Below, piece by piece: positions 3,013 through 15,655 of a stretch of DNA of 64,000 bases (the stretch's first letter is position 1; every line of letters begins with the position of its first letter). Source of the DNA: Halorubrum sp. PV6. Its GTDB lineage: Archaea; Halobacteriota; Halobacteria; Halobacteriales; Haloferacaceae. Below the pieces are notes generated by a model that worked only from the letters and a program-made list of their open reading frames with translations, had not been told where the DNA came from and did not search any database. The position numbers and the translations under genes were made by a program. The stretch spans positions 1,116,001-1,180,000 of the forward strand of contig NZ_CP030064.1 of assembly GCF_003990725.2 (NCBI RefSeq), written 5' to 3'.

Positions 3013-3957
3013 GTGTTCACGCGACGCACCGGTGCGCTGTTTCTCGTCTCCGCCGTCCTCTTCGGCGGTACCTTCGTCGCGGCGAAGGCCGGGCTGGCAC
3101 ACATCCCGCCGCTGTTCTTCGTCGCCGTCCGGTTCGACATCGGCGCGCTCGTCCTCGCAGTGTTCGCGGCGACGCGGCTCTCGTGGGACGAGTTGCGCCC
3201 GCGGACCGCCGGCGACGTCGTCGGCATCGTCGCGACCGGCGTGATCGTCATCGGCCTGACGAACGCGTTGCTCTTCGTCGGCCAGCAGTACGTGTCGAGC
3301 GGCGTGGCAGCCGTCGTGTTCAGCCTGAACCCGATTCTGACCCCGGTGTTCGCCGCGCTCCTGCTCAGCGACGACCGCCTCTCCGCCCGCGGCTTCGCCG
3401 GCATGGCGCTCGGGCTGGCCGGCGTCGCGCTCGTCGCCGACCCCGACCCCTCGGCGCTTTCCGGCGGCGGCCTCGGCGTCCCGCTGCTGTTCGGCGCCGC
3501 CGTGACGAGCGCGCTCGGCGCCGTGCTGATCCGCCGTGCCGACGCGACCCTCTCGAGTACGGCGAGCACCGTCTGGGGCGTCCCGCTGGCGGCGGTCCTC
3601 TCGCACGCGCTGAGTTTCGGCGCCGGCGAGTCCGTCTCCGGGCTGTCGGTGCCGCCCGTCGCGCTCGCGGCGCTCCTGTACGTCGGCGTCTTCTCCGGGG
3701 CGATCGCCTACCTCGCGTACTTCGCGCTTATCAACGAGACCGACGCGACGCGCGCGAACCTCCTGTTTTACTTCGTCCCGGTCGTCTCCGCGGTGGGCGG
3801 CTGGGCGTTGCTGGGGGAGACGCTCTCGGTTCAGTCGCTGGCCGGATTCGGCGTCATCTTCGTCGGGTTCCTCCTCGTGAGCGGCCTCGCGAGGGCTCCG
3901 GTGCGCCTGCTCCGTCAGGTGGTCCCGGCGCGGTTCGTCGACGACGACCCGCTGTGA
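3013..3957 (+). CDS. EamA/DMT-family transporter
   Basis: A 314-residue integral membrane protein with ten predicted helices in two EamA repeats (roughly residues 8-138 and 150-290), the RhaT/YdcZ drug-metabolite transporter fold. These carriers export or import small metabolites or amino acids; the substrate is not readable. Repeat 1 opens with FLVSAVLFGGTFVAAKAGL, and the first repeat has the usual SSGVAAVVFSLNPILTPVFA. The start is the GTG at 3013 (VFTRRTGALF), giving the full ten-helix length. It is monocistronic and convergent with the BtuF-like gene only 3 bp away. Confidence 0.88.
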   Translation: MFTRRTGALFLVSAVLFGGTFVAAKAGLAHIPPLFFVAVRFDIGALVLAVFAATRLSWDELRPRTAGDVVGIVATGVIVIGLTNALLFVGQQYVSSGVAAVVFSLNPILTPVFAALLLSDDRLSARGFAGMALGLAGVALVADPDPSALSGGGLGVPLLFGAAVTSALGAVLIRRADATLSSTASTVWGVPLAAVLSHALSFGAGESVSGLSVPPVALAALLYVGVFSGAIAYLAYFALINETDATRANLLFYFVPVVSAVGGWALLGETLSVQSLAGFGVIFVGFLLVSGLARAPVRLLRQVVPARFVDDDPL

Positions 3958-3960
3958 ACA

Positions 3961-6609
3961 TTAGTCGATTCCACGAGCTGCGAGCAGTGTTCCTGCAACA
4001 AGTACCGTGAGCGCGGCAAGGGTGCCAAACCCAGGCGTACTGTCGCTGGTAGTGTCATCGTTCGTGCCGTCGCTTATCGTAGTACTGTCGTTGGTCGTGG
4101 TGTTGTTGGCGTCGCTGGCAGTGGAGTTGTTGGTGTTGTCACCCGTCGTAGTGTCGTCGTCAGCGGTGTCGCCGTGAGGAGTACTACTATTGTCGGTTTC
4201 ATTGCTGGTACTGTTGTCGTCAGAGTCACCCTCGCCGGTGCTAGTACTGCTGTCATCGTCTGCGACACTCCCGCCAGCGTCCTCATCAGTATCAGCGATA
4301 CTATCGCCGCCACTGGTTGTACCATTATCACCCTCATTTTCACTGCCGGTGTCACTACTCTCAGTGTTGTCAGTTGCAGCGTTGGACGCCGCGACTGCGA
4401 ACGGGGATAGTCCAGAAGTCGTGGCCGTAATTGTGACCTCGTTGTTGTTGCGTGATGACTCGGAGTCAGCAAGTTCTTTCCAAGACCCGTCTGTATAGTG
4501 TAGAAGAACGGCGTCTTCAACAGCGATGTCGCCAAGCGCAGACTTACTAACAGTTACTTTCAACTCAATATCCTTACTCACATCAGTATCTGCTTCAATA
4601 TCGAGGTAGGTCGCAACAGTGTTGCTTGGCGTTGATGAGTTTCCAGTTGGGCTTGTCGACTCTGAGACGGTCACTCTACTCGCTGTTGAATTTGGCCGAA
4701 AAGTGAGACCTACACTCTGGACTTTCCCAGCGCCTTCAGAGAGGTCAACCAGAGATTGATCGTTCCCAGCGGGGCTACTCTCTCGGCTAAGAATATTCTT
4801 ATCTTCTATTACAGCCGTTGCAAGTGTCTCCGTTGATTCAATCACACTACGGGGAGCTGGTTGATTGAGATAGCTTACGTTCATCACCACGTATCGGTCG
4901 TTAATCCCTGCGGTTGTACTAGCATACGGGCTCTCATCAAGAACTGAAGCGTCAGGCGTGGTAACGAGTAGCAGTTCTGGGTCTGATTCTAAGATTACTT
5001 CTGCAGAGAGTTGCGGGTACCCAGCGTGGTTCTTGGCAGCGACGTTGTTAGTGCCACCGACCTGCATAATCTCATTGATGAAGGTGTCATCTGCGGCGAC
5101 GTATCCACCACCGAGAGGGTAAAGTGCATCCGGGCGGTTGAGATTAGCTGTTTGGTTCTTCACACGGTCGACAGTTGCGTTCATCTCCTCATTCGTACGA
5201 TTTGCTTCATCACAGTTGCCAACGAGACGCCCAGTCCGCGTTGTTTTTGCTGCAATATCAGCAACAGAAGTCGCTTTTGGGAAGTGATAGACAGTCAGAT
5301 TTTGTCTGCGTAACGAGGCAACATCACCAGCTGACGCATTTGGTGCCAGCACTAAGTCTGGCTCAGTACCAACTACTTTCTCAACGTTAACGCCGAATTC
5401 AGCGGACACATCCGTTTTATCATTAGTCCCATTCAGGTACGTTGCATACCGCGTAATACCAACAACACGATCATGAGCGCCGATCTCCCAAAGTGTTTGA
5501 GCGGCTGATGGATTCGTCGTTGTGATACGGTCTGGTCGCTCCTTGAGCGTGATGGTCGTACCTGTAGCATCAGTCAGCGAAACCGGAAAGCCACACGTCT
5601 CAGTATCTGTAGAATCATTATTACCAGCAGGTTGCTGTGACTCAATTTCACGTGAAAGCGTTTCAACCGACTCAATCACACTACGCGGTGCAGGCTGGTT
5701 AAGATAGTTCTCGTTCATTACGACATAATTCATCTCCTGTCCAGCAGTTGTGCTTGCGTATGGCTCTTCATCAAGGAGTGGAGCCTCAGGGTCTGTGACA
5801 AGTAGTAACTCGGGATCGGTTTCAATCACGACTTCAGCGCTTAATTGTGGGTAGCCGTCACCCTCCGCGGCGGCAATATTATTCGTGCCACCAATGCTCA
5901 TTATCTCGTCAATAAATGTCTCATCACCGGCGACATATCCACCTCCGAGTGGATACAGTGTGTCAGGGCGATCAAAATCAGCAGTCCGGTTTGTGACATT
6001 ATCAACAGCGGAATTCATTTCTTCATTCGTGCTGCTGGCTGCTTGACAGTTCCCAACTAGCTGCCCTATTGTTTCTGTCTTTTTTGCGATATCACTGATA
6101 GTGGTGGCTTCTGGAAAGTGATAGACAGTGAGTCCGACCTCACGTAGGTCTTCGACTTGGCCCGCTGATGCATTTGGTGCTAATACAAGGTCTGGGTTGG
6201 TCGCTACCACTTTTTCAACGCTAACGCCAAACCCAGCAGAAACGTTCGTTTTGTTCTCAGTCCCATTCAAGTACGTCGCAAACTGGGTAACCCCAACAAC
6301 ACGGTCTTGAGCACCAATCTCCCAGAGAGTTTGAGCAGCCGACGGATTTGTCGTTGTGATCCGACTTGGCGATTCAGTAAGCGTTACAGTAGTTCCTGTG
6401 GCGTCTGTTTTGTTGAGTGGGAAGTCACAGGTTGTCTCAGTCGTTGCTTGTAGCGGCGCATGAACTGCCGCACCATTCGACGGTTTGTCTGCTGTTAACT
6501 GACCAACTGACCCTGCCTGTGTTGATTGTCCTCCACCGGCTACGACTGGTGTACCGAGGAGTGATGTTACTACAAGTGCAGCTAGAAGAACGGCCTGGGT
6601 CCGCTTCAT
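3961..6609 (-). CDS. tandem-duplicated BtuF-like ABC substrate-binding protein, PGF-CTERM anchored
   Basis: An 882-residue secreted surface protein. Residues 1-25 are a signal peptide (MKRTQAVLLAALVV). Two BtuF/periplasmic-binding (cobalamin/siderophore type) domains follow at ~61-325 and ~339-605, nearly copies of each other (both contain TTTNPSAAQTLWEIGA and LYPLGGGYVA). A PGF-pre-PGF type domain lies at ~640-745 (ending GLSPFAVAA), then a ~100-residue Ser/Thr/Asp/Asn-rich stalk, then the PGF-CTERM sorting helix (TPGFGTLAALTVLVAGTLL) that archaeosortase would process. No permease or ATPase (BtuC/BtuD) is adjacent, so it must work with partners elsewhere or simply bind ligand at the surface. 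Start set at MKRTQ (6609) rather than 44 codons upstream. Its codon usage is clearly less GC-rich than its neighbours. Confidence 0.85.
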   Translation of the reverse strand: MKRTQAVLLAALVVTSLLGTPVVAGGGQSTQAGSVGQLTADKPSNGAAVHAPLQATTETTCDFPLNKTDATGTTVTLTESPSRITTTNPSAAQTLWEIGAQDRVVGVTQFATYLNGTENKTNVSAGFGVSVEKVVATNPDLVLAPNASAGQVEDLREVGLTVYHFPEATTISDIAKKTETIGQLVGNCQAASSTNEEMNSAVDNVTNRTADFDRPDTLYPLGGGYVAGDETFIDEIMSIGGTNNIAAAEGDGYPQLSAEVVIETDPELLLVTDPEAPLLDEEPYASTTAGQEMNYVVMNENYLNQPAPRSVIESVETLSREIESQQPAGNNDSTDTETCGFPVSLTDATGTTITLKERPDRITTTNPSAAQTLWEIGAHDRVVGITRYATYLNGTNDKTDVSAEFGVNVEKVVGTEPDLVLAPNASAGDVASLRRQNLTVYHFPKATSVADIAAKTTRTGRLVGNCDEANRTNEEMNATVDRVKNQTANLNRPDALYPLGGGYVAADDTFINEIMQVGGTNNVAAKNHAGYPQLSAEVILESDPELLLVTTPDASVLDESPYASTTAGINDRYVVMNVSYLNQPAPRSVIESTETLATAVIEDKNILSRESSPAGNDQSLVDLSEGAGKVQSVGLTFRPNSTASRVTVSESTSPTGNSSTPSNTVATYLDIEADTDVSKDIELKVTVSKSALGDIAVEDAVLLHYTDGSWKELADSESSRNNNEVTITATTSGLSPFAVAASNAATDNTESSDTGSENEGDNGTTSGGDSIADTDEDAGGSVADDDSSTSTGEGDSDDNSTSNETDNSSTPHGDTADDDTTTGDNTNNSTASDANNTTTNDSTTISDGTNDDTTSDSTPGFGTLAALTVLVAGTLLAARGID

Positions 6610-6628
6610 GTACCACCACCAGAGAGTA

Positions 6629-6641
6629 AACAATATAAATA
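6629..6641 (-). promoter_or_regulatory. TATA-like box of the BtuF-like gene
   Basis: The minus strand reads CATATTTATATTG here, ~20-32 nt before the start codon at 6609, consistent with a leaderless transcript and supporting the chosen start. Confidence 0.55.
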
Positions 6642-6645
6642 TGGT

Positions 6646-6667
6646 TATAACAACTCCACTTGTTATA
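6646..6667. promoter_or_regulatory. palindromic operator candidate TATAACAA-N6-TTGTTATA
   Basis: A perfect 8-bp dyad with a 6-bp spacer directly upstream of the TATA-like box of the BtuF-like gene, overlapping where TFB would contact the BRE. Placement and symmetry are what a dimeric repressor (for example a metal- or cofactor-responsive DtxR-type regulator) would use. No regulator gene is next to it. Confidence 0.5.
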
Positions 6668-6749
6668 TCGGCAGAGAGTAACCGTCGAATATGTCGGCGG
6701 TGTTCAGATACGGATTGAAAGGTGAGGCGGTGCGTTTTCAAAGTGTTCT

Positions 6750-6817
6750 ATGCCCGAAAACGACCGCCTCAGCGCTGTTTAGACGAGATCAACTTAGACT
6801 TTGTGTGGCGAGAGGCC
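6750..6817 (+). pseudogene. N-terminal fragment of an IS6-type haloarchaeal transposase
   Basis: The plus strand reads MPENDRLS at 6750-6773 and, after one missing base, CLDEINLDFVWREA at 6776-6817. Together this resembles the N-terminus of the haloarchaeal IS6-family (ISH14/ISH29-like) transposases, which begin MPENDRLSG-C-L-D-(E/Q)-I-N-L-(E/D)-F-V-x-REA. The frameshift sits exactly where the GGC Gly codon is expected. Everything after residue ~22 is lost. The match is from memory of the family, not a search. Confidence 0.55.
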
Positions 6818-7001: not shown

Positions 7002-7439
7002 TCACTCGCAGGTGACATCCACTTCCTGCATCATTCTAACAGAGAGTTCGTTATTTTCGCCCACCGCGAACAGCATCACACTTAGGCCACCATCACTGGT
7101 TCCGTTACATCTTACCGAAACCTGAACACTATCGTCCGCACCAAGCGTCACTTCGCTGTTTGAGTTGCCCAGTGAGCCGTATGCGACGCTACCCGAGGTA
7201 TCGACCTCTTGGACGGAGAGATCAATTTCTCGACCAAATTGGTTAGTGACACGCAATGCGCCTCCTGTCGACCCGTTTTTTATTGACGGATTGTGGCTCT
7301 CAACAGCCAGATAGGCACTTTCGTCGTCTGCGACGGCGACATCGACAGACCGTTCGGCCTGTATCGCGCTGTACCCGGCGGTCCCGGTGATGACTGTCGC
7401 GAGAACGAACAGAGCGAGAATCAGCCGCCGGTGTCTCAC
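7002..7439 (-). CDS. secreted DUF1102-like beta-domain protein
   Basis: A 145-residue exported protein. Residues 1-27 are a signal peptide or N-terminal anchor (LILALFVLATVITGTAGYSA). The mature part begins QAERSVDVAVADDESAYLAV, the hallmark shared with the protein at 8264-10519, followed by a beta-sandwich with an LRVTNQFG strand, an LGADDSVQVSV strand and a terminal VDVTCE. The fold resembles the TasA/camelysin-like DUF1102 group. The start codon overlaps the stop of the upstream regulator (ATGA, 7436-7439), so the two are translationally coupled. It is the smallest of three paralogous secreted proteins in this cassette. Confidence 0.72.
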   Translation of the reverse strand: MRHRRLILALFVLATVITGTAGYSAIQAERSVDVAVADDESAYLAVESHNPSIKNGSTGGALRVTNQFGREIDLSVQEVDTSGSVAYGSLGNSNSEVTLGADDSVQVSVRCNGTSDGGLSVMLFAVGENNELSVRMMQEVDVTCE

Positions 7440-8014
7440 TCATCCACCTCCGGCGGCGGTCCGTCAGCGCCAAGCTTTCTTCCTCGAGCAACATAGGTAT
7501 GTGCAATCGCGGAGACGACGAGCGCGACAACGAGAAAAGCCATCCATGCGAGGTCTGGTAACGTGCTAAACAGTACCGCGTCGGTCCATAGCGCCGACAA
7601 CAACGCAGCCCCAACCGCCGCAAGGCCGAGGTAGTAGCCGTGCCACGGGATCTCGGGCTCAGTGACGACATCGAAGTACACATCGAGCTCCTCGGCGGCG
7701 GGCGTCGGACGCACAACGCCTGCACGCTTGTCGAACGAGACGACGTCGGCCTCGTCCATTTTCGGAAGGTGGCTCTGCTGGAGCGACACGTAACACGACT
7801 TTCGGGAGTCTGAATCCACTTCGGCAAGGGAAACCCCTGCTTCCCACGCGGCGACCCGCTTGGCCAGCCAGCCGAGGTCGGCCGCGTCCTCGTGCTGGCA
7901 GAGCGCGTGGAGCGCGAACCGTCGGCGTCGGTTCGACAACACGGAGAAGACCACCTCCTCGTCCAACTCAACGCCGGCACCGGATGTCAGCCAGTCGGTG
8001 GAGGACAGGTTCAT
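7436..8014 (-). CDS. membrane-tethered winged-helix regulator (DUF7344-like)
   Basis: A 192-residue protein. The N-terminal ~110 residues are a haloarchaeal DUF7344-type winged helix (VVFSVLSNRRRRFALHAL, LQQSHLPKMDEADVVSFD). Two transmembrane helices follow (about residues 125-147 and 150-172), and there is a short charged tail. Such proteins are thought to be DNA-binding regulators held at the membrane. It overlaps the downstream secreted-protein gene by 4 nt and is divergent from the beta-helix protein, so it is the obvious candidate controller of the surface cassette. Start MNLSSTDW at 8014 is supported by a TATA-like box at 8041-8050; an ATG one codon earlier also exists. Confidence 0.75.
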   Translation of the reverse strand: MNLSSTDWLTSGAGVELDEEVVFSVLSNRRRRFALHALCQHEDAADLGWLAKRVAAWEAGVSLAEVDSDSRKSCYVSLQQSHLPKMDEADVVSFDKRAGVVRPTPAAEELDVYFDVVTEPEIPWHGYYLGLAAVGAALLSALWTDAVLFSTLPDLAWMAFLVVALVVSAIAHTYVARGRKLGADGPPPEVDE

Positions 8015-8040
8015 CAAGTCACGCTAATGTTTTCCAACCA

Positions 8041-8050
8041 AATATATAGC
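8041..8050 (-). promoter_or_regulatory. TATA-like box of the DUF7344-like regulator
   Basis: Minus strand CTATATATTT, about 27-36 nt before the start at 8014, as expected for a near-leaderless archaeal promoter. Confidence 0.6.
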
Positions 8051-8135
8051 CTTTTTGTCTTTTTTGGGAGACATTCGCGAAGTTATCAAAACACCCACCC
8101 CTCGCGAGGCGTCTCAGGTGACACTCCCGCCGTGC

Positions 8136-8230
8136 GTCGTTTCGGTCCCCGTAAACGACTCGTTACGCGGTCTCACCGAGCGGTTATCGTATCGAAACCG
8201 CTCGTTTCGACGTTTCAACGAACCGAAAAC
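8136..8230. promoter_or_regulatory. cluster of GTTTC/GAAAC dyads in the divergent promoter region
   Basis: Between the divergent regulator and the beta-helix gene lie GTCGTTT(10)AAACGAC at 8136-8159, CGAAAC(5)GTTTCG at 8193-8209, and further GTTTC and GAAAAC half-sites at 8212-8230. The repeated half-site suggests cooperative binding of a regulator. No convincing TATA box was seen for the plus-strand gene. Confidence 0.4.
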
Positions 8231-8263
8231 GAAGTGGTGTCCACCCACAGAGTTAGGTGGATC

Positions 8264-10519
8264 ATGAGACGGCGGAAGCTACTTATCGGCATTGGCGCGG
8301 CCGCGGCGGGTGGGGGCGCGGCCTTCGGTACAGAAGCGTTCACCAGCGTACAGGCGGAGCGCAACGTGGATGTCGCGGTCGCGGGCGATCGGAGCTCGTT
8401 CATCGCGATCCAGCCACTCAGTAGTAACAATGCGGGCAAGTACGTAAACACGGAGAGCGACGATACGGTCGAAATCGAACTCGACGGTGGCAACAGCGGC
8501 TCTGGAGAGGGTGTCGCCCAAGACGCGATCACCCAACTCGAAGACCTGTTCCGGGTCGTCAATCAGGGCTCGCAGCCGGTCAGCGTCTACTTCGAGGACG
8601 ACAGCGAGGCGGTTACCTTCCGCGTCACGCGGTCGACCGGCACCTCAACGAACGGGTCGAACGGGGAGTCGCTCGAAGGTGCGGACAACTCGGTCGAACT
8701 CGCGGTCGGCGAGCAGGTCGTGGTGGGGATGACCGTCGACACGCTGAACAACGACGTGAGCGGGCAGCTGCTCGACAGTGCTGTTCTGTATGCGGACGCG
8801 AACGCTTCCGCGCCGCAGCAGAGCATTCCCGAGCCGCAGTACATCGTTGACGGGGACGGTGACGAGCCGAATACGTTCGAAACGCTCTCAGCAGCTCTCG
8901 GCGAAGCCACCGCCGACTCGGTGATCGGTATCAGAGGTAATGCGGTTGTTACCGAGGATCCAGCCGAGTGGGATGCTAGTAAAGACTACATCGCGACTGA
9001 GGAAGATAATGATGATAAGTGGCTTAATATCGGGATGAACGGCGTCACCGTCACTGGCTTCGACGGCACGCCGGAAATTGAAACGCCGACGAGTCTGGGC
9101 GGCGGTGAGAAGTTCATCGAGGTCACTGGAAGCGGTGTCACCGTCCGGAATCTAGAGATCACCGACGACCTGTCTGCTCGCGGTAATCCGGGCGGTGGAA
9201 ACCTCATCGTCAACGGTGACGACGCGACTGTCGACGGCGTCACGATTGACATCTCCGGCGGTCCAACCGGCAACGTGCCGCTCCGTGTCGCTGGCGGTGC
9301 GGACCCCACCGTCACCAACGCCGAGGTCCTCGGCGGACCGATCGCAGCGAACGGCGGCAGTGGTTCGGTGACGCTCACCGGTAACTACGTGGACACCGCA
9401 GGAGATAATGGAATCTGGTCGACACTAGATGCGGACTTCATGATTGAAAATAACCAAGTCGACAACCACGATACTGCAGGACCACATACGTCTGTGAGCA
9501 ACGCCAAAGAAATCAAGCTCACCGGTCCCAACTCGGTCAACGGTGAGACCGACACGGCCGCTCAGATGGAGTCGCTGCTCACCGAGAACTCGGTGAACTC
9601 GGTTCAGGTGAGCGGCGATGCGGGCACCCGGGCCACGCCGGACATCGTCGGTAGCGACAAGCAGTTCGCCAGCGTCAACGAGGTGCTCAAGCCCGGTGTC
9701 CAGGGTGGGAGCGCGGGCGGCAGCAGCTCTAAGTCTGCCCTCGTCGCGCTGTTCGAAGACGGCGAGTACGGCTCGCTGAGAAGTCAGATCTTTGACAGCG
9801 CCATCACTCATGACCGCGACGGTGCTGTCATCAAGGGTCTCAGCAAGCCGACGATCACCTACACCGGGATGGCCGGCGGAGGCACCGATGTCGAATTAGC
9901 TGGGGACAACATCACTGTTCAGGACCTTGACCTCGTCTTCACCAACGATCCAGACGAGCAGTCTGTCAGCGGAGAACCGTTCCTAGACTTCGCCGGACAA
10001 GGCGGAACCGCTCGCAACATCGACGTGACCTACGATCCCCGGCCCCGGTCCGGTGCCGGCGGCCCGACCGGGTACGTCGACGTCAGCGGAAGCGGTACAA
10101 TCACGTTCGAGGGCTGTACGTTCAGCGACACCACCTCGGGTGGAAGCAATCGCTACGTGTCGGCGAACGGACTGTACGATAACGGCGGTACGTTCGAACT
10201 GCTCGACTGCGTGTTCAACGACGGTACCCGGACCGACGCGAACGTCGGCGACTCCGGTACTGCTGTCTACAAGAACAACCAGTTCAACGCGACGCCTGCC
10301 GGTGGCACGGATTCGATCACCGGGAGTATGAGCGGCGGCGGCGAGTTCGACATCACTGACAACGACTTCGTCCCGGGTGCAGAAATGAAGATTACATCCT
10401 CATTAGCTGGCCGTGTAAACGATGTCACTAGTGGGGGAAGTGACGCCAAAGCGACACAATTATCGCAGGATAATGGCGTGGTCAAAATCAGAGTGAACGG
10501 TAACATTCTCGCCGGTTAA
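8264..10519 (+). CDS. secreted DUF1102-like/right-handed beta-helix surface protein
   Basis: A 751-residue exported protein. MRRRKLLIGIGAAAAGGGAA is a short basic-hydrophobic signal with an RRRK stretch (Tat- or Sec-like). The mature protein begins QAERNVDVAVAGDRSSFIAI, the same opening as the 7002-7439 product, and residues ~25-190 form the shared beta-domain. From ~195 to the end there are repeated Gly/Asn/Asp-rich strands (VTGFDGTPEI, VRNLEITDD, VTNAEVLGG) typical of a parallel beta-helix (pectate-lyase/NosD-like) adhesin or glycan-binding stalk. There is no C-terminal anchor, so retention must be by partners or assembly. The ATG at 8264 is chosen because it directly begins the signal peptide; the upstream in-frame extension has no such feature. 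Confidence 0.8.
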   Translation: MRRRKLLIGIGAAAAGGGAAFGTEAFTSVQAERNVDVAVAGDRSSFIAIQPLSSNNAGKYVNTESDDTVEIELDGGNSGSGEGVAQDAITQLEDLFRVVNQGSQPVSVYFEDDSEAVTFRVTRSTGTSTNGSNGESLEGADNSVELAVGEQVVVGMTVDTLNNDVSGQLLDSAVLYADANASAPQQSIPEPQYIVDGDGDEPNTFETLSAALGEATADSVIGIRGNAVVTEDPAEWDASKDYIATEEDNDDKWLNIGMNGVTVTGFDGTPEIETPTSLGGGEKFIEVTGSGVTVRNLEITDDLSARGNPGGGNLIVNGDDATVDGVTIDISGGPTGNVPLRVAGGADPTVTNAEVLGGPIAANGGSGSVTLTGNYVDTAGDNGIWSTLDADFMIENNQVDNHDTAGPHTSVSNAKEIKLTGPNSVNGETDTAAQMESLLTENSVNSVQVSGDAGTRATPDIVGSDKQFASVNEVLKPGVQGGSAGGSSSKSALVALFEDGEYGSLRSQIFDSAITHDRDGAVIKGLSKPTITYTGMAGGGTDVELAGDNITVQDLDLVFTNDPDEQSVSGEPFLDFAGQGGTARNIDVTYDPRPRSGAGGPTGYVDVSGSGTITFEGCTFSDTTSGGSNRYVSANGLYDNGGTFELLDCVFNDGTRTDANVGDSGTAVYKNNQFNATPAGGTDSITGSMSGGGEFDITDNDFVPGAEMKITSSLAGRVNDVTSGGSDAKATQLSQDNGVVKIRVNGNILAG

Positions 10520-10593
10520 GCTTCTCAGCCATTATTTTATTTCAATCACCGATCCCAAATTGAGACCACCGCACAACAGTATGTAAACGCATT

Positions 10594-10610
10594 AGCACTG
10601 AAGTAGTGCT
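10594..10610. repeat. 6-bp hairpin AGCACT(5)AGTGCT
   Basis: A short inverted repeat 75 bp after the beta-helix gene and 66 bp before the next GTG start. It could mark the end of the upstream transcript or a regulatory site; a T-rich stretch precedes it at about 10530-10545. Confidence 0.3.
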
Positions 10611-10675
10611 TCTGGTACTACTGTCGAGAGCGGGAGCAACGAATACATCTCATAGAAAACACAAAAAACTCATCC

Positions 10676-12265
<1,590 letters not shown>

Positions 12266-12376
12266 GGCTCGCTGCATGGCCCCACGGTAGGTACCGTCAC
12301 CACTCGCCCTTCTATAGCTCTCTTCGAGGAGAGAGTCTCGGTGTTTGCGCCAAGAGTGAATCCGATTATCGCCAAC

Positions 12377-12394
12377 TTTTATATCATCGTGATA
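12377..12394 (+). promoter_or_regulatory. promoter of the signal peptidase gene with overlapping dyad
   Basis: A TATA-like TTTTATATC lies about 25-33 nt before the ATG at 12410 and overlaps the dyad TATCA-TCG-TGATA (12382-12394). This suggests an independent, possibly regulated, promoter for the peptidase and its partner. Confidence 0.5.
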
Positions 12395-12409
12395 ACTGTT
12401 TCACAATGA

Positions 12410-13549
12410 ATGCGGGGAACAGCAGAGCGGTTGATTGAGGCTGTTATCATCCTTTTTGCGATCACCCTTCTTGCTGGACAAGTAGTTGGGCAGCCACTTT
12501 TGCTCGGATACGTCGAAACGGGGAGTATGGAACCGACGCTTGAACCTGGTGATGGGTTCATTTCACTGCCACCAGAGGTGGTCGGAGAGCTATCACCAGG
12601 TGACGTAATTGTATATCGAGCTAAGCAGGTAAACGGGGGTGGCCTGACCACACACCGCATTGTTGGTGAAACCGATCGGGGATACATAACGCAGGGTGAC
12701 GCGAATCCATTTACTGACCAGTCAGCCGGAGAACCGCCAGTTCGCGATCCGCAAATTGTTGGTGTCGGTGTACGCGCAGCTGGTAACCTCGTTACTATCC
12801 CAGAACTTGGTACAGGTGTCGTCGCAATTCGGAGTATCGGTGGCGGGCTCCAGCAACGCGTTCCGGCTCATATGTGGGCTGGCGCCGGTGTTGCTGGGCT
12901 GGTTATACTGTTAGCCAGCGGTAGTGGTGGCGGGCGTCTAGATCGAACAGCACTCCAAGATCGTTCTACCGGCCACAATAGCGTGCAAGGACCGTCTGTT
13001 GGGCCGCGTCAAATAATCTTATTTTGTGGAGCGATTGTCATCGCAACGGCAACCGCAAGTGCTATTGCTCCGCTTGGCCCAACAGAATATCGGGTTGTGA
13101 GCGCCGAAGCCGACTTACCCGGTCCGAACGTCATCGCTGCAGGTGAGACAGAAACGACGACATATCGCGTTCCAGGTGGAACTATCCTGCCAGTTCAATA
13201 TTACGTCGAGTCGGCTAGTGACGGTGTTGAGGTACTCAACGGGACCAGCAGCGGACGCATCCGACCAAGTGAATCAGCAAACGCCACGATCCGCTTGTCA
13301 GCACCTCCTGAAACGGGTGCATACAGACGGTATGTCCAAGAGTATCGATACCCGCTTGTGATACCCTCGTCGGTCGTTGAGTCCCTCTACCAAGTCGATC
13401 CCTTAGCCCCGATCCTCGTTCTCGATATGATCTTGGCGCTTCCGTTTCTGCTTGCGGCACGGTTTGTCAGTAACCGTCCGCAGGTTCGCGGTTCACCGGG
13501 TGTGAGTTCTGGTGGGAACCGTCTGCTTGGAGGGTCCCGTAATGACTGA
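12410..13549 (+). CDS. signal peptidase I, Sec11/SipW type, with C-terminal extracellular domain
   Basis: A 379-residue membrane serine protease of the archaeal/eukaryotic S26B class. It has an N-terminal TM helix (~8-32), then the nucleophile Ser39 in TGSMEPTL, then His82 in THRIV (instead of the bacterial Lys) and Asp97 in TQGDANP, the expected Ser-His-Asp arrangement. It continues well past the usual ~200 residues: a second TM (~150-170), a third (~200-220), an extracellular beta-rich domain (~225-340) and a terminal TM (~345-367). This peptidase probably cleaves the secreted proteins of the cassette, as SipW does for TasA. It overlaps the next gene by 8 nt. GC is distinctly lower than in flanking core genes. 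Confidence 0.88.
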   Translation: MRGTAERLIEAVIILFAITLLAGQVVGQPLLLGYVETGSMEPTLEPGDGFISLPPEVVGELSPGDVIVYRAKQVNGGGLTTHRIVGETDRGYITQGDANPFTDQSAGEPPVRDPQIVGVGVRAAGNLVTIPELGTGVVAIRSIGGGLQQRVPAHMWAGAGVAGLVILLASGSGGGRLDRTALQDRSTGHNSVQGPSVGPRQIILFCGAIVIATATASAIAPLGPTEYRVVSAEADLPGPNVIAAGETETTTYRVPGGTILPVQYYVESASDGVEVLNGTSSGRIRPSESANATIRLSAPPETGAYRRYVQEYRYPLVIPSSVVESLYQVDPLAPILVLDMILALPFLLAARFVSNRPQVRGSPGVSSGGNRLLGGSRND

Positions 13550-14612
13550 CACGAGCGACCAACTCGACAATGAGACTATTCTACGAATTCGAGACACGGT
13601 TGATACTCAGTACCTTCTTATTATTACCGTACTCATTTTGCTGATGACAGCGGGCCTGTGGGTTAGTTATACGACCCACGTAAGTCCAGAGACACAGACC
13701 GAAACCGAAGTCGTGTCACAGTGGAGTCGAACCGCGACGTTTGACCACGGCGCAACGGTGACTGGACAAAATCCGGTATACGACACAGGACAGAGCCTAC
13801 AGAATCAACGGGCGTACTTTCCACTCATTTCCCCGGTCCTTTCTGGAGAGTATCAGTTCCAGTACGCTGCAAGTGGTGATGGCAACGTAGATGTTGACAT
13901 TACGCTCCAATCAACCGTACAGAGCCGTAACGACGATATTGTATTTTGGCAACAGACTGATCAAATCGGGAGTGTCACGGCGGCAGACATAGATCCAGGA
14001 GGCACTACAAGTACCGCGTTTGAGTTCAATATGAACCAGACGCGAGTTCAGATAGAACGAGTCGAGGAGACATTTGGTGAGATACCAGGAGATCCGGTCG
14101 TAATTGTACAGGCACAGACTCGTATGACTGGCCGGATTAATGGTCAGCCGGTCAATCGTAAGTTCACTGATGAACTTCGATTGCTCCCAGATGGAGATAC
14201 GTTCGTTGTCAATGATCCGGGAGAAGTGGAGAATACAAGCAGCCAAACCCAAGCATTCACCACCACACGTGAGTACTCACCTCTCAGGAGTCTTGGCGGC
14301 CCGGTCGTGTTTCTACTTAGCACCGCCGGTCTGAGTATCAGTATCTTTGCACGCCGCCGCGGGGTGATCACCTTGTCAACAACAGAACGCGATCAACTAG
14401 TTCGTTCCGAGTACTCTGAGTGGATATCCGCTGGTTCCCTCCCCAACCAGCTTGATCTTCAAGATCCGAATGTTGTTGAAATGAAGACGCTTGTTGGTCT
14501 CGTTAATGTTGCTGCAGATACAGGCGAACGGGTGGTGTATGACCAGGAACAGGAGCGATACGCCGTTCTCCACAGCAGTCGAGTCTTCATTTGTGAGCCG
14601 CCCCTAGAATGA
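13542..14612 (+). CDS. DUF5305-like membrane protein, partner of the signal peptidase
   Basis: A 356-residue protein. An N-terminal TM helix (LLIITVLILLMTAGLWVSY, about residues 26-46) leads to a ~200-residue extracellular beta-rich domain. A second TM follows (~255-275, GGPVVFLLSTAGLSI), then a ~75-residue cytoplasmic domain. It matches the haloarchaeal DUF5305 family, which I recall being encoded beside SipW-type signal peptidases. Its ATG lies inside the end of the peptidase gene (8-nt overlap), so the two are co-translated. Likely an assembly or accessory factor; the exact role is unknown. Confidence 0.75.
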   Translation: MTDTSDQLDNETILRIRDTVDTQYLLIITVLILLMTAGLWVSYTTHVSPETQTETEVVSQWSRTATFDHGATVTGQNPVYDTGQSLQNQRAYFPLISPVLSGEYQFQYAASGDGNVDVDITLQSTVQSRNDDIVFWQQTDQIGSVTAADIDPGGTTSTAFEFNMNQTRVQIERVEETFGEIPGDPVVIVQAQTRMTGRINGQPVNRKFTDELRLLPDGDTFVVNDPGEVENTSSQTQAFTTTREYSPLRSLGGPVVFLLSTAGLSISIFARRRGVITLSTTERDQLVRSEYSEWISAGSLPNQLDLQDPNVVEMKTLVGLVNVAADTGERVVYDQEQERYAVLHSSRVFICEPPLE

Positions 14613-14709
14613 ACGGTGAATTTGGGACAGTGTGAGAGCATGATTGGCAGGTCGTCCATATTGGATCTCCTGCCGAAGTGAAAACCGGGAGACAGCGGAA
14701 CCGTCTGAG

Positions 14710-14794
14710 TGCGCGGGACCGGATTCGAACCGGCGGACCCCTACGGGATAGCGTCCTAAGCGCTACGCCTTTGGCCTGGCTCGGCAACCCGCGC
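14710..14794 (-). tRNA. tRNA-Leu (anticodon TAG)
   Basis: An 85-nt cloverleaf on the minus strand. Acceptor GCGCGGG pairs with CCCGCGC and the discriminator is A. The anticodon stem TAGCG/CGCTA closes the loop CTTAGGA, giving anticodon TAG. A long variable arm is present as in class II tRNAs, with T-arm CGGTTCGAATCCG. The 3' CCA is not encoded. It marks the right border of the lower-GC surface-protein block. Confidence 0.95.
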
Positions 14795-14956: not shown

Positions 14957-15655
14957 TCAGCAGTACTCGCAGTCGCAGTACGCCTCACAGACGGGATTGT
15001 CGCAGTCCGCGCCGCGCGCCGAGCAGTGTTCTCGGCCGTGTCGGATCAGGAGGACGTGAAGCGGGTAGATCAGCTCGTCGGGGACCAACTCGTCTAACGC
15101 GTCGTGTGCCGCCTCGTTCGACGCCGACTCCGGGACCAGCCCGAACCGCTTCGAGACGCGCTTGACGTGCGTGTCGACGGCCATCGTCGGCTTCCCGAAG
15201 TGGAAGTTCAACACGACGCTCGCGGTTTTCGGCCCCACGCCTTTGATCGCCGTCAGCCACCCCTTCGCGTCGTCGGTCGCCATCGCGTCGAGGAACGCGA
15301 GCGAGTAGGCGCCGCCCGTCTCCTCGCGGATCGCGGTCAGCGCACGCTGGATGCGCGCGGCCTTCTGGTCGGCCAGCCCCGCGACGCGAATCGTCTCCGC
15401 CAGCTCGTCGTGGTCGGCCGCCTCGATGGCCGCGAAGTCGTCGTAGCGGTCGAAAAGCGCCGCCGCGGCGCGGCTCGTGTTGGCGTCGGCGACGTTCTGC
15501 GAGAGAATCGTCGTCACCAGTTGGCGGACGCCCTCGCCCGGCTCCGCCGTCGGGTCGGCGCCGTGTTCGGCGACGCGGTCCACCGGCTCGTACAGCGCCA
15601 CCAGCTCGTCGTGAAGCTCGCGAACCCGCGATTCGGTCCACGCGTGCGTCGACAT
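14957..15655 (-). CDS. nth: endonuclease III (DNA glycosylase/AP lyase)
   Basis: A 232-residue HhH-GPD base-excision repair enzyme that removes oxidised pyrimidines and nicks the abasic site. It has the LSQN motif (51-54) and the helix-hairpin-helix KGVGPKTASVV with the catalytic Lys at 143. The GPD Asp is at 161 (AVDTHVKR). A Cys-rich C-terminus (Cys 211, 218, 223, 227, 229, 232) supplies the [4Fe-4S] ligands in the haloarchaeal arrangement. Divergent from the TFB-like gene. Confidence 0.93.
   Translation of the reverse strand: MSTHAWTESRVRELHDELVALYEPVDRVAEHGADPTAEPGEGVRQLVTTILSQNVADANTSRAAAALFDRYDDFAAIEAADHDELAETIRVAGLADQKAARIQRALTAIREETGGAYSLAFLDAMATDDAKGWLTAIKGVGPKTASVVLNFHFGKPTMAVDTHVKRVSKRFGLVPESASNEAAHDALDELVPDELIYPLHVLLIRHGREHCSARGADCDNPVCEAYCDCEYC

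What the first reader, a model, noticed from the sequence alone, without database searches (positions are those of the whole stretch)
7002..14612. Candidate archaeal TasA-SipW-like surface-fibre cassette
One block encodes a membrane-tethered winged-helix protein, three secreted proteins with a shared DUF1102-like domain, a Sec11-type signal peptidase with its own promoter, and a DUF5305-like membrane protein coupled to it. Bacterial TasA operons likewise pair fibre subunits with a private signal peptidase (SipW). The domain calls come from sequence motifs; the comparison with TasA-SipW is established knowledge; that these parts form one fibre or adhesion system is inference.
Basis: partly seen in the sequence, partly recalled or inferred. 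Interest (0 to 1): 0.75.

Follow-up and report, generated by a model that had tools for sequence, protein, structure and literature searches.

The report
Archaeal surface-fibre cassette, adhesin variant
A salt-loving archaeon (Halorubrum) carries, at a tRNA gene where foreign DNA inserts, a six-gene cassette related to the recently described Tat-fimbriae surface fibres; here the fibre-type domain carries a large, lineage-shuffled passenger that is probably an adhesin.

Summary
At 7002-14612 six genes form one block: B and R (minus strand) diverge from C, D, E, F (plus strand). R is a DUF7344 winged-helix protein with a membrane tail. B, C and D are secreted and share one domain. E is a Sec11-type (S26B) peptidase with a membrane/extracytoplasmic extension. 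F is DUF5305.

The interpretation (surface-fibre cassette with a private peptidase) is largely right, but the kind is already known: Tat-fimbriae ('tafi'). Independent NCBIfam models name B, C and D as TafC-, TafE- and TafF-like, below curated cut-offs. The C domain's top sequence and fold match is PDB 9P0A, the Natrinema J7-2 tafi pilus; other fold matches include archaeal bundling pili and FimA. Of 54 fully flanked peptidase loci in named haloarchaea, 45 hold the regulator, DUF5305 and a fibre-domain protein.

What is new is the variant. There is no TafA and no small pilin on the C side. C joins a conserved Tat signal and fibre domain (68-88% identity) to a hypervariable, probably beta-helical passenger (21-52%), apparently exchanged between lineages. 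The subtype is rare (3 of 145 genomes), one copy lies on a Haloarcula plasmid, and here it sits at a tRNA-Leu integration site. Most likely function: display of an exchangeable adhesin. Fibre formation is untested.

The parts
7436..8017 (-). R: DUF7344 winged-helix protein with a C-terminal hydrophobic (two-helix) tail; probable membrane-tethered regulator of the cassette
   Evidence: Pfam PF24035 95.6 bits; conserved next to the peptidase in 47 of 54 fully flanked named loci
7002..7439 (-). B: 145-aa secreted single-domain protein, TafC-like, Sec-type signal, in the TafC position next to R
   Evidence: NCBIfam TafC E=4e-10, 39 bits against cut-off 410; 62-65% identical copies in L004 and L038
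8264..8851 (+). C, N-terminal part (residues 1-196): Tat signal (MRRRKLLIGIG..), cleavage region ..TSVQA/ERNVDVAV (cleavage site inferred) and TafE/DUF1102-type fibre domain
   Evidence: TafE E=1e-22; PDB 9P0A profile match E=5.6e-15; AF2 model of residues 32-192, pLDDT 84, Foldseek top hit 9P0A; RRKLL invariant in six relatives
8852..10519 (+). C, passenger (residues 197-751): right-handed beta-helix-like, hypervariable between relatives
   Evidence: Pfam Beta_helix 28.1 bits, cut-off 25.9, in the window only of six clade members; identity 21-52% against 68-88% for the N-terminal part
10676..12265 (+). D: TafF-like secreted protein: fibre-type domain, PKD domain, Gly/Asp-rich linker, C-terminal transmembrane anchor; start codon GTG
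   Evidence: TafF E=1.4e-6 (28 bits against cut-off 420), PGF_pre_PGF 32.6 bits, PKD 55 bits; family HMM E=2e-23; linker and C-terminal hydrophobic segment in A5
12410..13549 (+). E: Sec11/SipW-type (S26B) signal peptidase with a C-terminal extension: further membrane segments flanking an extracytoplasmic domain
   Evidence: TIGR02228 53.9 bits, SipW model E=1e-6; Ser39, His82, Asp97, Asp103 invariant in 18 homologues; profile hits human SEC11A/SEC11C
13542..14612 (+). F: DUF5305 membrane protein: N-terminal TM, beta-sandwich ectodomain, second TM, small cytoplasmic domain
   Evidence: PF17231 152.5 bits; AF2 model pLDDT 94.5; present in 50 of 54 fully flanked loci
12376..12394 (+). Putative TATA element (CTTTTATAT) and overlapping dyad TATCA-TCG-TGATA upstream of E; likely own promoter/operator
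   Evidence: Dyad at the same place in L044, L045 and, with different letters, L004; not found in L040. Consensus-type evidence only
8192..8210 (.). Inverted repeat TCGAAAC-CGCTC-GTTTCGA in the R/C divergent intergenic region; candidate operator
   Evidence: Same place in L044 and L045; in L004 as CCGAAA..TTTCGG. A 7-bp arm occurs in 23 of 500 shuffles of the region, so the support is conservation, not rarity
14709..14794 (-). tRNA-Leu (TAG) whose 3' end borders the cassette: integration hotspot
   Evidence: the flanking genes lie about 2.1-2.2 kb apart in three relatives, 11 kb here and 22 kb in G149

Best explanation
It is a mobile, tafi-like (Tat-fimbriae-type) surface-structure cassette that displays an exchangeable passenger, most likely an adhesin. 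Proposed working. R, a membrane-tethered winged-helix protein, controls expression. C is exported folded through Tat; B and D go through Sec. The private Sec11/SipW-type peptidase E, held beside DUF5305 protein F, removes the signal peptides. The freed N-terminal strand of C (about ERNVDVAVAG) then fills the groove of a neighbouring fibre-type domain (donor-strand assembly, as in solved tafi, TasA and bundling pili). This either polymerises C or seats it on a short B/C/D structure that D holds to the membrane by its C-terminal TM, so the beta-helical passenger points outwards to bind a surface or partner. Shown: gene content, shared domain, conservation of the cassette, fold match, catalytic residues, constant N-terminus with variable passenger. 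Inferred: Tat and Sec routing, cleavage by E, donor-strand assembly, anchoring, adhesion, regulation by R, and that the solved tafi pilus itself uses donor strands (its paper was not read).
For: Independent NCBIfam Taf models hit B, C and D. The 9P0A tafi pilus is the top hit by sequence profile (E=5.6e-15) and by fold; next come FimA, the Sulfolobus thread and bundling pili. A canonical taf cluster (Haloferax larsenii plasmid, L007) contains the same R, E and F next to TafA, TafC, TafE and TafF. Among 54 fully flanked named loci R is present in 47, F in 50 and fibre-domain proteins in 54. Four of the five genome peptidases above the model cut-off lie in such clusters (with 13, 27, 37, 89). 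Passenger 21-52% against N-part 68-88%. L044/L045 are 87-90% identical in R, E and F but 29% in passenger; L045/L040 are 40-54% in R, E and F but 52% in passenger.
Against: Taf scores are below the curated equivalog cut-offs. No TafA or other small pilin is encoded on the C side, so a long fibre may not form. TM-scores to solved pilins are modest (0.48 for 9P0A, 0.35-0.42 for the next ones). Beta_helix is called in the window only, just above its cut-off, and the passenger profile finds no PDB relative. No expression, processing or microscopy data. No adhesion ligand is known.
Confidence: 0.68

Rival explanations
1. Accessory tip or decoration module: C, D and B join fibres built from the major pilin of another cluster in the same genome (the canonical taf cluster on contig 2) rather than making their own structure.
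For: The genome has a canonical taf cluster with TafA and TafE above cut-offs, and the window cassette lacks TafA.
Against: The cassette has its own peptidase, regulator and DUF5305. Two other genomes with the subtype (G132, G013) have no TafE above cut-off. A 55-kb Haloarcula plasmid carries the whole cassette as a unit. Other small fibre-domain genes in those genomes mean this is not fully excluded.
Confidence: 0.14
2. Surface enzyme: the beta-helix passenger is a polysaccharide lyase or other carbohydrate-active domain displayed by a Taf-type docking domain, and no fibre is made.
For: Right-handed beta-helices include pectate lyases and carbohydrate-active folds (own knowledge); the passenger varies as if matched to different substrates.
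Against: Pfam calls only the generic Beta_helix model in the window and no enzyme family; no solved enzyme matches the passenger profile; sequence and length vary strongly, with only 29 of about 516 profile positions invariant in six relatives.
Confidence: 0.1
3. A direct archaeal member of the TasA/camelysin-SipW family.
For: SipW-type peptidase (SipW model E=1e-6), donor-strand-type pilin fold, and a fold match to the bundling pili described as TasA-related.
Against: None of 70 members matches the camelysin/TasA Pfam family; TasA is absent from the top 50 fold matches shown; [quoted passage not shown]
Confidence: 0.05
4. General secretion or envelope quality-control cassette: E and F process many exported proteins, and the Taf-like proteins are merely some of their clients.
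For: Signal peptidases can be promiscuous (own knowledge); F has no assigned function.
Against: A separate, stronger archaeal signal peptidase is present elsewhere (C1:140327, 103 bits); the extended peptidases occur with fibre-domain genes in 54 of 54 fully flanked loci.
Confidence: 0.03

Closest known systems
Tat-fimbriae (tafi; TafA/TafC/TafE/TafF), Galeva et al., iScience 2025, 28:111793; NCBIfam NF052520-NF052523; PDB 9P0A (Natrinema sp. J7-2 tafi pilus)
   Same: Same fibre-type domain, Tat signal on a main secreted subunit, same neighbours (DUF7344 regulator, extended Sec11-type peptidase, DUF5305), and TafC/TafE/TafF-like proteins in corresponding places
   Different: No TafA or small pilin; C is a TafE-type domain plus a ~555-aa passenger; D has a PKD domain and a C-terminal TM; all Taf scores below equivalog cut-offs; peptidase in a separate clade. 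The paper itself was not readable here; only a citing paper, model names and the PDB title were.
TasA-SipW-TapA biofilm fibre of Bacillus subtilis
   Same: Dedicated SipW-type peptidase encoded with its exported substrates; beta-rich pilin with a likely N-terminal donor strand
   Different: No sequence match to TasA/camelysin; no DUF7344 or DUF5305 partner in TasA operons; TasA is not described as a Tat substrate (own knowledge)
[quoted passage not shown]
   Same: Donor-strand type pilin fold among the top fold matches
   Different: No sequence relation detected; different lineages; gene neighbourhood not compared here
Type 1 pilus FimA
   Same: Fold match of the fibre domain; donor-strand principle
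   Different: Chaperone-usher assembly across an outer membrane; none here

Membership tests
Tat-fimbriae (tafi) | TafA major pilin encoded in the cluster | tested here: not met
   TafA model hits only residues 3-55 of C (42 bits, cut-off 190); no other ORF on the C side
Tat-fimbriae (tafi) | TafC, TafE and TafF at equivalog level | tested here: not met
   B 39/410, C 81/155, D 28/420 bits against cut-offs; homologous but divergent
Tat-fimbriae (tafi) | Fibre domain homologous to a solved tafi pilin | tested here: met
   Profile match to 9P0A E=5.6e-15; Foldseek top hit 9P0A, E=2.7e-4, TMq 0.48
Tat-fimbriae (tafi) | Twin-arginine signal on a main secreted subunit | tested here: met
   MRRRKLLIGIG in C; RRKLL invariant in six relatives. 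B and D lack a conserved twin-arginine motif
Tat-fimbriae (tafi) | Cluster partners: DUF7344 regulator, extended S26B peptidase, DUF5305 | tested here: met
   Present here and in the canonical cluster L007
Tat-fimbriae (tafi) | Filaments on the cell surface | not testable with these tools
   Needs electron microscopy
TasA/camelysin family | Sequence membership (camelysin/TasA Pfam family) | tested here: not met
   No such hit among 70 domain members
TasA/camelysin family | Dedicated SipW peptidase at equivalog level | tested here: not met
   SipW model 28.5 bits against cut-off 190; the archaeal signal peptidase I model is passed instead
[quoted passage not shown]
   The first predicted strand, residues 3-8 of the mature domain, has lower confidence (pLDDT about 70) in the monomer model; no multimer prediction was available
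DUF1102 (PF06510) | Pfam gathering score | tested here: inconclusive
   Window C domain 18.0 bits against 22.2; 40 of 70 relatives match at E <= 0.01
Sec11/S26B signal peptidases | Ser-His (not Ser-Lys) catalytic residues with conserved Asp | tested here: met
   Ser39, His82, Asp97, Asp103 invariant in 18 sequences; profile hits SEC11A/SEC11C
DUF5305 | PF17231 gathering score | tested here: met
   152.5 bits, cut-off 29

The most novel reading that the evidence does not exclude
A polymorphic-adhesin system: a mobile tafi-like cassette without a classical major pilin, in which a nearly constant Tat-signal plus donor-strand domain serves as a plug for swappable beta-helical passengers, exchanged between lineages by recombination at the domain boundary (around residue 196 of C), giving closely related haloarchaea different surface specificities.
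Probability: 0.4. Interest if true: 0.62.

Novelty: new variant of a known kind. Interest (0 to 1): 0.47.

Why it matters
The cassette type is widespread in haloarchaea: a domain of this family occurs in 111 of 145 genomes sampled. The data identify DUF1102 as this fibre-type domain and tie DUF5305, DUF7344 and an extended Sec11-type peptidase to it as a functional set, which gives three 'unknown function' families a testable role. The window variant adds a question open to direct test: do archaea diversify their surface by swapping passengers on a conserved fibre plug, as bacteria do with tip adhesins?

Tried and rejected
(1) DUF5305 as an analogue of the eukaryotic signal-peptidase accessory subunit SPC22/23: the confident model (pLDDT 94.5) gave only generic beta-sandwich matches (TMq 0.20 or less) and no SPC subunit among the 50 shown; not supported. 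(2) Viral origin: no relative of the peptidase in viral contigs. (3) Duplicated tRNA-Leu 3' end as an att repeat around the cassette: not found, so the integration mechanism is not shown. (4) The tafi paper PMC11821415 is not held; its content is known here only through a citing paper, NCBIfam names and the PDB title. (5) A PDB relative for the passenger: none at E <= 0.1. (7) A regular-expression logo of signal junctions caught too few sequences in its second part and was not used. (8) One passenger alignment failed through wrong coordinates and was redone.
Full report
What is in the sequence. The block 7002-14612 holds six genes: R (7436-8017) and B (7002-7439) on the minus strand, and divergently C (8264-10519), D (10676-12265), E (12410-13549) and F (13542-14612) on the plus strand. 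R/B overlap by 4 nt and E/F by 8 nt. R carries DUF7344 and a hydrophobic tail; F carries DUF5305; D has a PKD domain; C has a marginal right-handed beta-helix match. E passes the archaeal signal peptidase I model and weakly matches SipW. Its Ser39, His82, Asp97 and Asp103 are invariant in 18 homologues, and its profile finds human SEC11A and SEC11C, so it is of the Ser-His S26B type.

Identity of the secreted proteins. NCBIfam has models for the Tat-fimbriae proteins TafA, TafC, TafE and TafF. They hit B (TafC, 4e-10), C (TafE, 1e-22) and D (TafF, 1.4e-6), all below the curated cut-offs. An iterated HMM of the domain hits B, C and D at 1e-15, 1e-54 and 2e-23 (partly circular, since C was a seed). 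A profile of these 70 matches PDB 9P0A chain C (E=5.6e-15). An AlphaFold2 model of the mature C domain (pLDDT 84) has 9P0A as its only Foldseek match under 0.001, described as the Natrinema sp. J7-2 tafi pilus released 2025-07-23; FimA, the Sulfolobus 0406 filament and Pyrobaculum bundling pili follow. The tafi system was published as Galeva et al., iScience 2025, 28:111793, and is described in a citing paper as thin filaments with TafA as core component, exported by Tat (PMC12687288). I could not read the original.

Conservation of the cassette. An annotated Haloferax larsenii plasmid (L007) has TafC, TafA and TafE above cut-off and a TafF-like protein (372 bits against 420), next to the same R, E and F. 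Searching named genomes with the extended peptidase gave 80 kept loci. Of the 54 with full flanks, R is present in 47, F in 50, a fibre-domain protein in all 54, and all three in 45. The commonest order, fibre protein and R on one strand, then fibre proteins, E and F on the other, is the window's order. For scale, the window's genome has only three DUF5305 and nine DUF7344 matches in 3.04 Mb. It has five signal peptidases above the model cut-off; four lie in fibre-domain clusters (C1:55.9k, C1:484.7k, window, C2:185k) and one, the strongest, does not (with 13, 27, 37, 89).

How this copy differs. There is no TafA and no small pilin on the C side. The C N-terminal part occurs at this similarity in only 3 of 145 haloarchaeal genomes, although the TafE-type domain occurs in 111. 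In the six, residues 1-196 of C are 68-88% identical, while the remainder is 21-52% identical and varies in length.

The variation does not follow the rest of the cassette. L044 and L045 share 87-90% in R, E and F but 29% in passenger. L045 and L040 share 40-54% in R, E and F but 52% in passenger (50% over 409 aa, E=3e-112). Rank correlation of pairwise identity with E is 0.90 for F, 0.86 for D, 0.66 for C N-part, 0.63 for R and 0.17 for the passenger. Exchange of passengers between lineages is the simplest reading; only six sequences support it.

Location. In three related genomes the flanking transporter gene (3013-3957) and nth (14957-15655) lie about 2.1-2.2 kb apart with the tRNA-Leu between them; here they are 11 kb apart, and in G149 22 kb, where the insert includes a resolvase-like gene and partial tRNA-Leu copies. 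G+C falls from about 70% outside to 50-60% over most of 4-15 kb, except around D. A ~125-bp sequence at about 6695-6816 is repeated elsewhere in the genome. No duplicated tRNA end flanks the cassette, so acquisition is likely but its mechanism is not shown. A complete related cassette on a 55-kb plasmid supports mobility.

Most likely mechanism. Shown: shared domain, fold match, conserved set, catalytic residues, constant N-part and variable passenger. Inferred: C is exported by Tat and B and D by Sec; E cleaves the signals; the N-terminal strand joins subunits by donor-strand complementation as in TasA (PMC9674648); D anchors; the passenger is an adhesin; R regulates. Candidate operators are inverted repeats at 8192-8210 and 12382-12394, kept in place in two Halorubrum relatives and with different letters in L004, absent in L040. 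They are leads only.

Verdict. Observation confirmed. Interpretation mostly right in kind, but the system is already described as tafi; TasA is a functional analogue and not shown to be the same family. The window is a rare, probably mobile variant whose exchangeable passenger is the part worth following.

Noticed in passing
window 3961-6741 (-): One 926-aa ORF holds two tandem copies of a BtuF-like periplasmic-binding domain with a PGF-CTERM-type tail (TIGR04281 in two stretches; DNA repeats spaced 834 nt). It lies in the same low-G+C insert.
   Followed up: partly
window about 6695-6816: A ~125-bp sequence with four further near-full-length copies in the genome (88-93%) plus shorter ones; probably a mobile-element remnant beside the cassette. 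It also matches G006 about 1 kb from nth.
   Followed up: partly
L127, L128 (G149 C32:86500-112500): The same tRNA-Leu site in another Halorubrum holds a 22-kb insert with a resolvase-like gene and partial tRNA-Leu copies, pointing to an integration hotspot.
   Followed up: partly
L044:6678-7747 and L045:7105-8171: A rhomboid-type protease ORF (motif GYGASGVVMG) sits on the minus strand between D and E in two relatives. Rhomboid genes are also annotated near the taf-type peptidase on Natrialba magadii pNMAG02 (L005) and Haloferax larsenii pHl5678-1 (L007).
   Followed up: no
L045:10499-11683 and 12903-14450: A second extended peptidase and a further fibre-domain protein lie directly after the window-type cassette in Halorubrum sp. 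GN11_10-6_MGM.
   Followed up: no
L042 (G123 C2:50000-69900): A cluster with six fibre-domain proteins in a row, three of them over 600 aa; Beta_helix was confirmed for the 824-aa one, suggesting several displayed passengers.
   Followed up: partly
G000:C1:2118948-2120419: A further locus of the window's own genome has two TafE-type hits beside a DUF7344 gene, but no peptidase or DUF5305 hit nearby.
   Followed up: no
L028:6931-7812 (-): The canonical taf cluster on contig 2 of the same genome has no DUF5305 hit; a 293-aa membrane protein follows TafF instead.
   Followed up: no
window 8192-8210 and 12382-12394: Inverted repeats upstream of C and E, position-conserved in close relatives; candidate operators.
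   Followed up: partly
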